Below the pieces are notes generated by a model. The model did no database searches and had not been told where the DNA came from. It was given only the letters and a program-made list of their open reading frames with translations. Both the position numbers and the translations under genes were made by a program. Positions 40,923 to 44,993 of a stretch of DNA of 56,052 bases are shown here, piece after piece; positions within the stretch are counted from its first letter, which is position 1, and each line of letters opens with the position of its first letter. This DNA is from Burkholderiaceae bacterium (GTDB lineage: Bacteria; Pseudomonadota; Gammaproteobacteria; Burkholderiales; Burkholderiaceae_E). Where the stretch lies: the NCBI GenBank assembly GCA_024637395.1, contig JAGXFG010000118.1, positions 1 to 56,052 on the forward strand, given 5' to 3'.

Positions 40923-42461
40923 ATGAGCACGCCCCAAGATTTCCCACGGATCGGTGTCGTCGGCGCCGGTGCCATGGGACGCGGTATCGCACAGCTGTTC
41001 GCCCAATCGGGCCACCAGATAGTTCTCTGGGACAGCCAGCCAGAGGCGACCACCGCCGCCCTGCAGGCGATCGGTTCGACCTTCGAGCGCCTCACCGAGA
41101 AGGGGCGGATGACGCCCGAAGAGGCGCAGGCAGCACGCGCGCGGATCTCGAGCATCGAGCGGCTGGAGGGGATGGCGAATTGCGACCTGGTGATCGAGGC
41201 GATCATCGAACGGCTCGATGCCAAGCGCCTGATCTTCGAGCGCCTCGAGGACATCACCGGGCCCGATGCAGTGCTGGCGACCAACACCTCGTCGCTGTCG
41301 GTAACCGCTATCGCCGCGGCCTGCAGCAGGCCGCAAAGGGTCGCCGGAATTCACTTCTTCAATCCGGTGCCGCTGATGAAGGTCGTCGAAGTCATCCGCG
41401 GAGTGCGCAGCGACGACAGCGTGATCGAACGACTGATCGCGCTGGTGCAGGCAAGCGGTCACCGGCCAGTGGTCGCGTCGGACACCCCGGGATTCCTTGT
41501 CAACCACGCTGGCCGCGGCTACGGCACCGAGGCCCTGAAGGCTCTCGGCGAGGGGGTCGCGGACGCAGTCACCATCGACCGGATCATGCGCGAACAGGTC
41601 AATTTCAATGGCAACGGCTTTCGCCTTGGTCCCTTCGAACTGCTCGACCTGACCGCGCTGGACGTCTCGCACCCGGTCATGGAGTCGATCTATCGCCAGT
41701 TCTACGACGAAGCGCGGTTTCGTCCCTCGGTGATCACCGCCCAGCGTCTGGCCGGTGGCCTGCTCGGGCGCAAGACCAAGGAAGGTTTTTACCGCTACGT
41801 CGACGGCAAGCAGGTGCTTGCCGAAGAGCCTCCGGTGCCACCGGCAGGCAGCCTGCCACCGGTCTGGATAAGCCCTGCCGGTGAGCGGAGCGCGGCCTTG
41901 GCCAAGACGGTCGCGGAGCTTGGCGCAACGCTCGAGAACGGCGCTCAGCCTTCTGCTCAGGCACTGATTCTGCTGGCGCCGCTGGGCGTCGATGCCACTG
42001 CCGCGGCCGCCGGCCTGGATGCCAGCCGCTGCGTGGCCATCGATACGCTGTTCGGCTACGCGGCCGGGTCCTGCAAGCGCCGGGTGCTGATGGCGACCCC
42101 GGCGACCAGGCCCGAGTTCGTGGCGGCGGCACGCAGCCTGTTTGCCGCCGACGGCGCGGCGGTTGACGTTCTGCGCGACAGTCCCGGATTCGTCGCCCAA
42201 AGGGTCGTCGCGATGATCGTCGCGATCGGCTGCGAAATCGCCCAGCAACGCATCGCCGAACCCGCCGACATCGATGCCGCGGTGCGGGCCGGACTGGGAT
42301 ACCCGGCCGGGCCCCTCGAGATGGGCGACCTGCTCGGCCCGGCGACGATCGTCGAGATCCTCGCGGGAATGCATGCCGTGACCGGCGATCAGCGCTATCG
42401 GCCATCGCAGTGGCTGCGCCGGCGCGCGCTGCTGGGCCTGACGCTGCACCATCAGGATTGA
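40923..42461 (+). CDS. 3-hydroxyacyl-CoA dehydrogenase
   Basis: NAD-dependent oxidation of 3-hydroxyacyl-CoA in beta-oxidation or aromatic (phenylacetyl-CoA) catabolism; PaaH-like. It has 512 residues. The Rossmann motif GAGAMGRG is at 14-21, the NAD-domain segment LVIEAIIERLDAK near 90, and catalytic IHFFNPVPLMKVVEVI around 140-156. The C-terminal dehydrogenase domain appears twice (about 190-285 and 415-505; the second has DSPGFVAQRVVAMI and GLGYPAGPLEMGD). GAGG lies eight bases before the ATG. A TACAAT at 40868-40873 may be the -10. It leads a tight run of four plus-strand genes. Confidence 0.92.
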   Translation: MSTPQDFPRIGVVGAGAMGRGIAQLFAQSGHQIVLWDSQPEATTAALQAIGSTFERLTEKGRMTPEEAQAARARISSIERLEGMANCDLVIEAIIERLDAKRLIFERLEDITGPDAVLATNTSSLSVTAIAAACSRPQRVAGIHFFNPVPLMKVVEVIRGVRSDDSVIERLIALVQASGHRPVVASDTPGFLVNHAGRGYGTEALKALGEGVADAVTIDRIMREQVNFNGNGFRLGPFELLDLTALDVSHPVMESIYRQFYDEARFRPSVITAQRLAGGLLGRKTKEGFYRYVDGKQVLAEEPPVPPAGSLPPVWISPAGERSAALAKTVAELGATLENGAQPSAQALILLAPLGVDATAAAAGLDASRCVAIDTLFGYAAGSCKRRVLMATPATRPEFVAAARSLFAADGAAVDVLRDSPGFVAQRVVAMIVAIGCEIAQQRIAEPADIDAAVRAGLGYPAGPLEMGDLLGPATIVEILAGMHAVTGDQRYRPSQWLRRRALLGLTLHHQD

Positions 42462-42469
42462 GCAGCGCA

Positions 42470-43186
42470 ATGAGTGCCAGCCCACCGCCAGCCACCCGCC
42501 GGCGCATCTATCTGATGCGCCACGGCAGCGTCACGTATTTCGACGCCAACGGCCAGCCCCGGGAACCGGACGGCGCGCCGCTCAACGAAACCGGCCGGCG
42601 CGAAGCCATGGCAGCCGGAGAACTGTTCGCCCGGGCCGGGGTGCACTTCGACCGCGTCATCGTGAGCGGCCTGGTGCGCACCGTCGAGACCGCCGAACTG
42701 GTGCTCGGGGAAATGGGCGCCGAGCGCCGCCTGGAGGTCTGGCCGGAGCTGGTCGAGATCAAGGGTGGCCAGCTCTCGAAGCTGCGCGACGACGAATTGC
42801 GCGATGCGTTCCTGGGCTCGCTCGAGGGCTGTCCAGATCCGGCGACGCGCTTCCTGGGCGGCGAATCGATGGGAGAACTGCTGGACCGGGTGATCCCCGC
42901 GATCGAACGGCTGCGCGCCAGCACTGACTGGGAAACCGTGCTGCTCGTCTTGCACGGCGGCGTCAATCGGGCGATCCTCTCTCATGCCCTGACCGGCGAG
43001 CATCGCCTGCTCGGGGGACTGCAACAGTCACCGGCGTGCGTCAGCGCGCTCGACGTCGGGGCCAATCCCCGCGACTGGGTGGTGCGCTATGTAAACCTGT
43101 TCGCCAGCGACTTGCTCCAGCGCCACGCGCGCCGGACAACGATGGAAGAACTGCTCGATCAGTATCTGGTAGGGAGAAGAAGATGA
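42470..43186 (+). CDS. Histidine phosphatase (phosphoglycerate mutase-like) family protein
   Basis: Branch-1 histidine phosphatase of 238 residues. The catalytic RHG is at 17-19 (YLMRHGS). The second Arg is in SGLVRTVETAE, the acid in ELVEIKGG, and the second His in LVLHGGVNRA. All catalytic residues are present, so an active phosphatase is expected. It begins nine bases after the dehydrogenase and its stop overlaps the kinase gene (ATGA). The substrate is unknown. The coupling to an APH-fold kinase suggests a phosphorylated small molecule rather than glycolytic phosphoglycerate. Confidence 0.85.
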   Translation: MSASPPPATRRRIYLMRHGSVTYFDANGQPREPDGAPLNETGRREAMAAGELFARAGVHFDRVIVSGLVRTVETAELVLGEMGAERRLEVWPELVEIKGGQLSKLRDDELRDAFLGSLEGCPDPATRFLGGESMGELLDRVIPAIERLRASTDWETVLLVLHGGVNRAILSHALTGEHRLLGGLQQSPACVSALDVGANPRDWVVRYVNLFASDLLQRHARRTTMEELLDQYLVGRRR

Positions 43187-44280
43187 GCCAGGGAAAGCCT
43201 GACGGCCCCAAGCAACAACCCAGCGCGGCAGCAGCTTTCGTGGGAACGATGCCGGTTTCCGATCGCCATCGGTTCGACGTCGCGGCGCTCGAGGCCTGGT
43301 TGCACGAGCATTTGCCCGGATTCAAGGGTCCGCTCAAAGTCGAGCAATTCCGCGGCGGCCAATCCAACCCGACCTACAAGCTGACGGCCCCGGAGCGCAG
43401 CTACGTGATGCGCACCAAGCCGGCTCCGGCCAGCCTGCTGCTGCCATCGGCGCACGCGGTCGAACGCGAATTCGCGGTCATGAAGGCATTGGCCGGCACC
43501 GGCGTGCCGGTTCCCGAGGTCTACTGCCTGTGCGAGGACGAGGCCGTGATCGGCCGCGCCTTCTTCCTGATGGAGCTGGTCGTCGGCCGGGTGCTCTGGG
43601 AGCAGTCGCTGCCCGGCATGACCAGGGCCGAGCGCCACGCCGTCTATGACGAAATGAACCGGGTGATTGCAGCCCTCCATTCCGTCGACCCGGCCGCCGT
43701 CGGCCTGGCCGAGTTCGGCAAGCCCGGCAACTACTTTGCGCGCCAGATTGCCCGCTGGAGCCGCCAATATCGCGCCTCCGAGACCGAGACCATCGAAGCG
43801 ATGGATGCCTTGATCGAATGGCTGCCGCAGCACATCCCGCCCGGCGAAGAGACGGCGATCGTTCACGGTGATTACCGGCTCGACAACCTGATTTTCGCTC
43901 CCGACGAGCCCCGCATTCTGGCGATTCTCGACTGGGAGCTCTCAACCCTCGGGCATCCGCTGGCAGACTTCTCGTACCACTGCATGGGCTACCACATCGC
44001 TCCCGGGGAATTCCGCGGCATCGGCGGGCTCGACCTGGCCGAACTGGGCATCCCCAGCGAGGAGGAGTACGTCGCGCGCTACTGCGAGCGCACTGGTCGC
44101 ACGGGCATCGACAACTGGGACTTCTATCTCGCCTACAACCTGTTCCGGCTCGCCGGCATCCTCCAGGGCATCATGCGCCGGGTGGTCGACGGTACTGCTT
44201 CCAGCCAGCAGGCCCGTGACGCCGGCCGCCGCGCCCGCCCGCTGGCGGAAATGGGCTGGGCCATCGCCCAGCGGGTCTGA
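43183..44280 (+). CDS. APH-fold phosphotransferase (ACAD10/11-N-like kinase)
   Basis: Aminoglycoside-phosphotransferase-fold small-molecule kinase of 365 residues. It shows the ACAD10/11-type signatures: FRGGQSNPTYKL (about 58-69, nucleotide loop), YVMRTKPAP with the ATP-binding Lys, catalytic HGDYRLDN with Asp230, and metal-binding LDWE with Asp250. Relatives phosphorylate the 4-hydroxyl of acyl-CoAs (LvaA in levulinate catabolism; human ACAD10/11), so antibiotic resistance is unlikely. The gene overlaps the phosphatase by four bases and follows a hydroxyacyl-CoA dehydrogenase. Hydroxyacyl-CoA kinase activity is an inference. Confidence 0.85.
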   Translation: MSQGKPDGPKQQPSAAAAFVGTMPVSDRHRFDVAALEAWLHEHLPGFKGPLKVEQFRGGQSNPTYKLTAPERSYVMRTKPAPASLLLPSAHAVEREFAVMKALAGTGVPVPEVYCLCEDEAVIGRAFFLMELVVGRVLWEQSLPGMTRAERHAVYDEMNRVIAALHSVDPAAVGLAEFGKPGNYFARQIARWSRQYRASETETIEAMDALIEWLPQHIPPGEETAIVHGDYRLDNLIFAPDEPRILAILDWELSTLGHPLADFSYHCMGYHIAPGEFRGIGGLDLAELGIPSEEEYVARYCERTGRTGIDNWDFYLAYNLFRLAGILQGIMRRVVDGTASSQQARDAGRRARPLAEMGWAIAQRV

Positions 44281-44297
44281 AAATCAAGGACTACGCA

Positions 44298-44993
44298 ATG
44301 ATCGACCTCTACACCTGGCCGACCCCCAACGGGCACAAGATCCACATCATGCTCGAGGAATGTGCCCTGCCCTACGCGATCCACGCGGTCGACATCGGGG
44401 CCGGCGAGCAGTTTGACCCCGAGTTCCTGGCGATCAGTCCGAACAACAAGATTCCCGCGATCGTCGACTCCGACGGACCGGGCGGCAAGCCGTTCACGCT
44501 GTTCGAATCGGGCGCCATCCTGCTCTACCTGGCGGGCAAGACCGGGCGGTTCCTGCCGCGTTCGGAGCGGGGCAAGTATCGGACCCTGGAGTGGTTGATG
44601 TTCCAGATGGGCGGATTCGGCCCGATGCTCGGACAGGCCCACCACTTCCGGATCTATGCCCCCGAACGCATCGAGTACGCCTATCAGCGCTACACCCGCG
44701 AAGCCGCGCGTCTCTATGGTGTCCTCGACCGGCGGTTGGCGGAAACCGGCGCATACATCGCCGGCGGGCAGTACACGATTGCCGACATGGCGCTGTGGCC
44801 CTGGGCGCGCTCGCATGCCAACCAGGGGATCGACTTCGCCGACTACCCGCAGGTCGGGCGCTGGTTCGAGAAAATCGGCGCGCGGCCCGCAGTCAAGCGG
44901 GCGGTCAAGGTGCTCGCCGAGCGGCGGCGGCCGTTGGTCGACGAACAGGCGAAAGCCAACCTGTTCGGCGGCGAGCAATACCTCCGGCGTTAA
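44298..44993 (+). CDS. Glutathione S-transferase, Nu-class / YfcG-like disulfide reductase
   Basis: 231-residue GST-fold protein. The N-terminal MIDLYTWPTPNGHKIHIMLEE and SPNNKIPAIVD match the YfcG/YghU group. In that group a Thr and Asn near the start hold glutathione disulfide, giving disulfide-bond reductase activity. The C-terminal helical domain has YIAGGQYTIADMALWPW. AAGGA precedes the ATG by nine bases. It is 17 bases after the kinase gene and is probably the last gene of the same transcript. It is a different subfamily from the GST at 40096-40746. Confidence 0.88.
   Translation: MIDLYTWPTPNGHKIHIMLEECALPYAIHAVDIGAGEQFDPEFLAISPNNKIPAIVDSDGPGGKPFTLFESGAILLYLAGKTGRFLPRSERGKYRTLEWLMFQMGGFGPMLGQAHHFRIYAPERIEYAYQRYTREAARLYGVLDRRLAETGAYIAGGQYTIADMALWPWARSHANQGIDFADYPQVGRWFEKIGARPAVKRAVKVLAERRRPLVDEQAKANLFGGEQYLRR

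What the first reader, a model, noticed from the sequence alone, without database searches (positions are those of the whole stretch)
40923..44993. Coupled phosphatase-kinase pair behind a hydroxyacyl-CoA dehydrogenase: candidate hydroxyacyl-CoA processing module
Four plus-strand genes (3-hydroxyacyl-CoA dehydrogenase, histidine phosphatase, ACAD10/11-N-like APH kinase, YfcG-like GST) are spaced 9, -4 and 17 bases apart. The kinase has intact HGDxxxxN and DWE motifs and the phosphatase has all its catalytic residues. Known relatives of this kinase phosphorylate 4-hydroxyacyl-CoAs (LvaA; ACAD10/11) and then work with an acyl-CoA dehydrogenase that eliminates phosphate. Here no acyl-CoA dehydrogenase is present and a phosphatase takes its place, which would be an unusual wiring. 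The function is inferred; the gene set and coupling are seen.
Basis: partly seen in the sequence, partly recalled or inferred. Interest (0 to 1): 0.55.

Follow-up and report, generated by a model that had tools for sequence, protein, structure and literature searches.

The report
Phosphatase partner of a hydroxyacyl-CoA kinase
A bacterial gene cluster probably used to burn 4-hydroxy fatty acids carries, beside a kinase of known kind, an extra phosphatase that accompanies such kinases in distant bacteria and is fused to one in two species, so it probably resets or cleans up the kinase's product rather than replacing the next enzyme.

Summary
The four genes are real, tightly coupled and under purifying selection. 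The kinase is of the ACAD10/11-N type; a Burkholderia orthologue is published to phosphorylate 4-hydroxyacyl-CoA. The proposed 'unusual wiring' (phosphatase instead of acyl-CoA dehydrogenase) fails: outside the window's genus 30 of 31 genomes with the phosphatase-kinase pair also hold an LvaC-type dehydrogenase in the locus (the 31st contig ends too soon). The four genomes of the window's genus lack it there, but the own genome has one on contig C80, with the ACAD10/11-specific residues, between an SDR and an acyl-CoA ligase. The pathway is most likely split over two loci. The phosphatase is the interesting part: it lies by the kinase in 26 of 26 genomes with a high profile score, recurs in kinase clusters of Thermus, Azospirillum, Stutzerimonas and Acinetobacter, and is fused in frame to the kinase in two genomes of the same family. 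Best reading: it hydrolyses the phosphorylated intermediate, or its free acid, as overflow control or repair, a role once proposed and not found for ACAD10's phosphatase-like domain. This activity is inferred. One earlier paper noted such a phosphatase in one Pseudomonas cluster.

The parts
40923..42461 (+). 3-hydroxyacyl-CoA dehydrogenase, 512 aa (PaaH-like two-domain type; passes the general 3-hydroxyacyl-CoA dehydrogenase model NF006124, not the PaaH equivalog)
   Evidence: found near the kinase in many relatives
42470..43186 (+). histidine phosphatase (branch 1), 238 aa, no curated equivalog; catalytic R17 H18 R70 E96 H162
   Evidence: model mean pLDDT 80.9, closest PDB folds are small phosphatases
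43183..44280 (+). ACAD10/11-N-like APH-family kinase, 365 aa; its start overlaps the phosphatase stop (ATGA)
44298..44993 (+). YfcG-like glutathione S-transferase, 231 aa (NF010579 245.8 bits, below its cut-off of 332)

Best explanation
The locus is the kinase half of a split 4-hydroxyacyl-CoA catabolic pathway (chemistry of LvaA/LvaC and ACAD10/11). Inferred flow: a CoA ligase and an SDR (contig C80) make 4-hydroxyacyl-CoA from 4-hydroxy or 4-keto acids; the window's kinase phosphorylates the 4-hydroxyl; the LvaC-type dehydrogenase on C80 eliminates phosphate to give 2-enoyl-CoA; a hydratase (absent from this locus, present in the fuller operons of relatives) and the window's 3-hydroxyacyl-CoA dehydrogenase carry it into beta-oxidation. 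The histidine phosphatase is an additional, conserved partner of the kinase that most likely hydrolyses the kinase's product, or the free 4-phospho-acid left when its CoA is lost, back to the hydroxy form, so that CoA and phosphate are not trapped when the kinase outruns the dehydrogenase. Shown by computation: gene set, catalytic residues, co-occurrence, fusion, the unlinked dehydrogenase with its specific residues. Inferred: all substrates, the direction of flow, joint expression of the two loci, the phosphatase's role.
For: Kinase: E 1e-168 to PDB 3dxp, 8e-84 or better to ACAD11; D220, N225 and CoA-contacting R176 of ACAD11 map to D230, N235, R187. PMC11342911 (passages): the Burkholderia pseudomallei orthologues could replace ACAD10's kinase and ACAD domains on 4-hydroxyhexanoyl-CoA. 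Dehydrogenase: own genome C80:2264-3481, the only match at E <= 1e-60, with R626, HCMR and D753 equivalents of ACAD11, between SDR and AMP-dependent ligase. Genus g12 of the same family holds SDR, ligase, phosphatase, kinase and dehydrogenase at one locus (L123, L124). Pairing: 13 of 13 of the 61 relatives' genomes (own included) with an orthologue of at least 44% identity; 26 of 26 genomes with a profile score of at least 257 bits, once across a contig break (G001) and once with an LvaB-like gene between (G495); kinase clusters on records of Thermus (2), Azospirillum, Stutzerimonas, Acinetobacter; in-frame phosphatase-kinase fusion of about 600 aa in 2 of 3 genomes of genus g12. The own genome shows only one kinase of this family.
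Against: No activity was measured for any protein here, and joint expression of the two loci is assumed. G001 of the same genus has no C80-type dehydrogenase, only a 52% relative, though that has HCMR and the Asp. Many relatives run the kinase without the phosphatase: 70 of 80 named loci, 45 of them with a Crp-type regulator in its place, so it is not obligatory. Of 12 low-scoring family members none is beside a kinase; four are beside an LvaC-type dehydrogenase, eight beside neither, three of these with a kinase 7-9 kb away. The tree does not settle the origin of the C80 dehydrogenase (p-AU 0.31 for grouping with the operon clade).
Confidence: 0.6

Rival explanations
1. One reading: the phosphatase takes the place of the acyl-CoA dehydrogenase; kinase and phosphatase alone form a new hydroxyacyl-CoA processing cycle.
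For: No dehydrogenase lies in the locus in the window or, as far as their contigs run, in the three congeners; G001 has no C80-type dehydrogenase.
Against: 30 of 31 genomes with the pair outside the genus have an LvaC-type dehydrogenase in the locus, one undetermined; the own genome, G002 and G003 keep one elsewhere, and G001 has a more distant one with the same residues. Hydrolysis only undoes phosphorylation, it does not move the hydroxyl.
Confidence: 0.07
2. The phosphatase serves the pathway in another way: as a regulatory partner of the kinase, or as phosphatase of another metabolite.
For: ACAD10's haloacid-dehalogenase domain, in the same polypeptide part as the kinase, has negligible phosphatase activity and restrains the kinase (PMC11342911, passages). 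Eight family members lie beside neither kinase nor LvaC-type dehydrogenase. In genus g243 the phosphatase sits beside the dehydrogenase while the best kinase hit is elsewhere (4 of 4 genomes).
Against: The catalytic residues are invariant over 18 sequences, Thermus and Acinetobacter included, which a purely structural role would not need.
Confidence: 0.27
3. The locus is a decaying remnant of the ancestral operon after loss of the hydratase and the dehydrogenase.
For: Hydratase and dehydrogenase are missing from the locus in all four genomes of the genus, as far as the contigs run.
Against: dN/dS of 0.07-0.19 for the four genes; junctions are tight and the kinase start overlaps the phosphatase stop.
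Confidence: 0.06

Closest known systems
[quoted passage not shown]
   Same: Kinase, LvaC-type dehydrogenase, SDR and CoA ligase are all in the window's genome
   Different: Split over two loci; kinase of the ACAD10/11-N type; no LvaB-like DUF6285 found in the genome (that LvaB is DUF6285 is my reading of position and size); histidine phosphatase, 3-hydroxyacyl-CoA dehydrogenase and GST added. The lva gene functions are taken from passages of PMC6692424
lva-type cluster of Pseudomonas citronellolis LA18T
   Same: Histidine phosphatase gene beside an LvaA homologue, with LvaC and LvaD homologues; the authors suggested that it may remove phosphate from 4-phosphovaleryl-CoA (PMC6692424, passages)
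   Different: LvaA-proper kinase, one locus; the phosphatase was not tested there
Mammalian ACAD10 / ACAD11
   Same: Same kinase and dehydrogenase families; ACAD10 also has a phosphatase-like domain in its kinase part
   Different: ACAD10's is a haloacid-dehalogenase domain with an incomplete motif and negligible activity (PMC11342911, passages); here it is a histidine phosphatase with a complete site, separate or fused
PFK-2/FBPase-2 (kinase and histidine phosphatase setting one metabolite)
   Same: A small-molecule kinase joined to a branch-1 histidine phosphatase; FBPase-2 is among the sequence hits
   Different: Other kinase fold and substrate (recalled, from no call); analogy only

Membership tests
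ACAD10/11-N-type 4-hydroxyacyl-CoA kinase | Sequence membership and catalytic HGDxxxxN plus DWE | tested here: met
ACAD10/11-N-type 4-hydroxyacyl-CoA kinase | CoA-contacting arginines of ACAD11 (R86, R176) | tested here: inconclusive
   R176 maps to R187; R86 could not be placed with the same offset (both chains have Phe there; an Arg directly precedes the Glu in both)
ACAD10/11-N-type 4-hydroxyacyl-CoA kinase | Phosphorylation of 4-hydroxyacyl-CoA | not testable with these tools
   Published for a Burkholderia orthologue (PMC11342911, passages); not for this protein
LvaC/ACAD10-11-type dehydrogenase (own genome, contig C80) | HCMR motif, the Arg equivalent to R626, catalytic Asp | tested here: met
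lva operon | LvaA to LvaE in one locus | tested here: not met
   No dehydrogenase at the locus; SDR-ACAD-ligase on C80; no DUF6285 in the genome
Histidine phosphatase superfamily, branch 1 | Arg-His pair, second Arg, Glu, second His | tested here: met
Alpha-ribazole phosphatase CobC | Curated equivalog score | tested here: not met
   69.7 bits against a cut-off of 162.9
PaaH 3-hydroxyacyl-CoA dehydrogenase | Curated equivalog score | tested here: not met
   401.5 bits against 669.4; passes the general NF006124

The most novel reading that the evidence does not exclude
Kinase and histidine phosphatase form a dedicated switch on 4-phospho-acyl-CoA, found in at least two phyla with two kinase subfamilies and fused into one bifunctional protein in a Burkholderiales genus: a bacterial counterpart, with a working phosphatase, of the kinase plus inactive phosphatase-like domain of ACAD10.
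Probability: 0.35. Interest if true: 0.65.

Novelty: new variant of a known kind. Interest (0 to 1): 0.5.

Why it matters
The phosphatase-like domain of ACAD10 was expected to remove the phospho-intermediate and was found not to. A bacterial kinase that keeps an apparently intact phosphatase beside it, in two genomes within one polypeptide, makes the question testable: does 4-hydroxyacyl-CoA metabolism need a safety valve against trapped phospho-acyl-CoA? It may also matter for engineered levulinate and gamma-lactone pathways, where such a phosphatase could limit flux or protect the cell (inference).

Tried and rejected
Rejected: 'phosphatase replaces dehydrogenase' (see rivals). Rejected: the C80 dehydrogenase as a simply relocated copy of the family's operon enzyme: holding its three genus rows together with 13 family rows is rejected (p-AU 0.0055; the group was chosen after the tree was seen). 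Grouping with the whole operon clade is not rejected (p-AU 0.31), so its deeper origin is open. Rejected: decay (dN/dS). In the first all-against-all clustering phosphatase and kinase fell into one cluster; I took that for overlapping-frame noise, and only the equal open-frame lengths of G014 and G024 led me to the fusion. No other phosphatase-kinase pair in the loci checked by script is fused.

Led nowhere: promoter and terminator scans (0 and 2 sites, not more than in shuffles); NCBIfam gave no passing model for phosphatase or kinase; the 2017 lva paper is not held. One phosphatase that I put into profile A1 (Burkholderia cenocepacia, L153) has no kinase within 6 kb and may have drawn in some low-scoring hits.

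Limits: genome searches score only part of the first-look candidates (7 or 8 per genome), so absences are soft. Rows dropped before trees: hits under 55% (dehydrogenase) or 48% (kinase) identity to the queries or too short, then near-copies: 79 of 121 dehydrogenases and 98 of 135 kinases kept; trees are 'quick' ones. Some of the 80 named loci are cut by contig ends (marked), so their 'no phosphatase' or 'no dehydrogenase' may be a cut; the phosphatase of G375 lies about 1 kb from a contig end. Of 34 plasmid records with a phosphatase match I opened 6; two of these 'plasmids' are 3.2 and 4.0 Mb long and may be chromosomes. The wider phosphatase-kinase link and the fusion were not met in paper searches, of which I saw listings (at most 20 rows each) and which cover open-licence PMC papers only.
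Full report
WHAT IS THERE. The four genes are as described: 3-hydroxyacyl-CoA dehydrogenase 40923-42461, histidine phosphatase 42470-43186, kinase 43183-44280, GST 44298-44993. The junctions are 8 bases, an ATGA overlap and 17 bases. Pfam confirms the families; the 3-hydroxyacyl-CoA dehydrogenase passes the general model NF006124 and not PaaH; neither phosphatase nor kinase passes an NCBIfam cut-off. The genome is an assembly of 3.46 Mb in 131 contigs; its nearest named relatives by the kinase are metagenome-assembled 'Burkholderiaceae bacterium' genomes. dN/dS against congeners is 0.07-0.19 (the 3-hydroxyacyl-CoA dehydrogenase against one congener, the other three genes against two).

THE KINASE. 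Best solved relatives are 3dxp (E 1e-168) and ACAD11 (8v3v, 6e-85). Of the ACAD11 residues named in PMC12440821 (passages), D220, N225 and R176 map to D230, N235 and R187 of the window's kinase; R86 could not be placed. PMC11342911 (passages) reports that orthologues from Burkholderia pseudomallei could replace the kinase and dehydrogenase domains of ACAD10 on 4-hydroxyhexanoyl-CoA. A 4-hydroxyacyl-CoA kinase is therefore the strong default.

THE MISSING DEHYDROGENASE. Of 80 named loci fetched with the kinase, 56 have an LvaC-type dehydrogenase within 2.5 kb. The fullest order is 3-hydroxyacyl-CoA dehydrogenase, enoyl-CoA hydratase, phosphatase (or a Crp-type regulator), kinase, dehydrogenase, GST. 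Three of the 80 have the phosphatase but no dehydrogenase: L031, L032, L089, which by contig coordinates are G003, G002 and G001, the congeners of the window. The own genome has one dehydrogenase of this type at E <= 1e-60, on contig C80, 68% identical to that of L033. It has the R626, HCMR and catalytic-Asp equivalents and stands between an SDR and an AMP-dependent ligase. G002 and G003 have the same set (in G003 the SDR is about 6.5 kb off); G001 has only a 52% relative, which has HCMR and the Asp too. In genus g12 of the same family SDR (73-74%), ligase (62-63%), phosphatase, kinase and dehydrogenase form one locus (L123, L124), and in G057 ligase, dehydrogenase, kinase and SDR do (L150). 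The C80 enzyme groups with that of G057 (SH-aLRT 97); a simple move of the family's operon copy is rejected (p-AU 0.0055), a looser grouping with the whole operon clade is not (p-AU 0.31). The own genome shows one kinase of this family and one such dehydrogenase, as expected if they serve each other. No DUF6285 (LvaB-like) gene is found in it.

THE PHOSPHATASE. Among 61 genomes (own included) 14 have a match at E <= 1e-10; 13 of these are at least 44% identical and all 13 lie directly upstream of the kinase (in G001 the pair is cut by a contig end, with the last 38 residues left beside the kinase); the 14th is a 33% hit. In samples of 348 (phylum), 399 (order) and 370 (class) genomes, 8, 33 and 2 have a profile match at E <= 1e-35, 38 distinct genomes in all. 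All 38 have a kinase. The 26 with at least 257 bits all have phosphatase and kinase together (G001 as above; in G495 an LvaB-like gene lies between them). None of the 12 with at most 227 bits has it beside a kinase: four (genus g243) have it 30-113 bases from an LvaC-type dehydrogenase, eight beside neither, of which G882, G135 and G245 have a kinase 7-9 kb away. Together 35 distinct genomes hold the pair: 4 of the window's genus, 31 others. Of the 31, 30 have an LvaC-type dehydrogenase in the locus and in one (G732) the contig ends right after the kinase. Of the 30, 27 are within 200 bases of the kinase, G711 1.4 kb, G495 1.9 kb and G330 4.8 kb away; 29 have HCMR and the Asp, and that of G038 is cut by a contig end before the motif. 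Outside this order, five of six opened plasmid-collection records have phosphatase, kinase and dehydrogenase together: Thermus thermophilus, T. oshimai, Azospirillum ramasamyi, Stutzerimonas stutzeri, Acinetobacter baumannii; the sixth, Burkholderia cenocepacia, does not. Four of those kinases aligned here are only 18-25% identical to the window's, the phosphatases 23-46%, with the same catalytic residues: the association arose or survived with two kinase subfamilies. In G014 and G024 phosphatase and kinase are one open frame with about 600 aa from its likely ATG and no stop between; the one scanned, from G024, has both Pfam domains; the third genome of that genus has no match. The model of the window's phosphatase (mean pLDDT 80.9) is closest to small branch-1 phosphatases (alpha-ribazole phosphatase, glucosyl-3-phosphoglycerate phosphatase, phosphoserine phosphatase), which does not name a substrate.

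HOW IT MOST LIKELY WORKS. Kinase and dehydrogenase are expected to run the known route: 4-hydroxyacyl-CoA, 4-phospho form, 2-enoyl-CoA. A phosphatase on the same intermediate gives no net chemistry, so it would control or repair: it may return 4-phospho-acyl-CoA to the hydroxy form when the dehydrogenase is outrun, or clear the free 4-phospho-acid, which PMC11342911 found in cells beside the CoA form (passages). The same authors first expected such a role of ACAD10's haloacid-dehalogenase domain, saw negligible activity and concluded that it restrains the kinase. The bacterial arrangement would be the version with a working phosphatase. This role is inference.

WHAT IS KNOWN. PMC6692424 (passages) noted a histidine phosphatase gene next to the LvaA homologue of Pseudomonas citronellolis and suggested action on 4-phosphovaleryl-CoA, untested. 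So the pairing was seen once in print; its breadth, the fusion and the split pathway were not met in my paper searches.

AGAINST. 70 of 80 named kinase loci show no phosphatase and 45 have a Crp-type regulator there, so it is optional. No assay exists. Eight of 38 genomes have a family member beside neither kinase nor LvaC-type dehydrogenase. First-look limits and contig ends make absences soft.

VERDICT.

Noticed in passing
L069, L073, L081, L090, L096 (Roseateles, Paucibacter and a Burkholderiaceae MAG): Crp-type gene and kinase, then the GST, without the dehydrogenase at the locus: another lineage in which kinase and dehydrogenase are apart.
   Followed up: partly
L041-L094 (mostly Comamonadaceae): A Crp/Fnr-type regulator gene stands where the phosphatase stands, directly before the kinase, in 45 of 80 named loci.
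   Followed up: partly
L163, L167, L189, L190 (genus g243): Histidine phosphatase beside the LvaC-type dehydrogenase, while the best kinase hit lies elsewhere in the genome.
   Followed up: partly
L086 549-2664 and L095 8001-10129: Two kinases of this family in tandem (60-62% and 51% identical to the window's), with a dehydrogenase on the other strand some kb away.
   Followed up: no
L155 4578-6750 (Stutzerimonas plasmid): A DUF6285 (LvaB-like) gene lies between kinase and phosphatase; PMC6692424 reported no lvaB in the similar P. citronellolis cluster, where locus numbers skip at that place (but also at others).
   Followed up: no
L123 2258-4048 and L124 1704-3509: Acyl-CoA ligase directly upstream of the phosphatase-kinase fusion gene, so that SDR, ligase, fusion and dehydrogenase follow one another.
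   Followed up: yes
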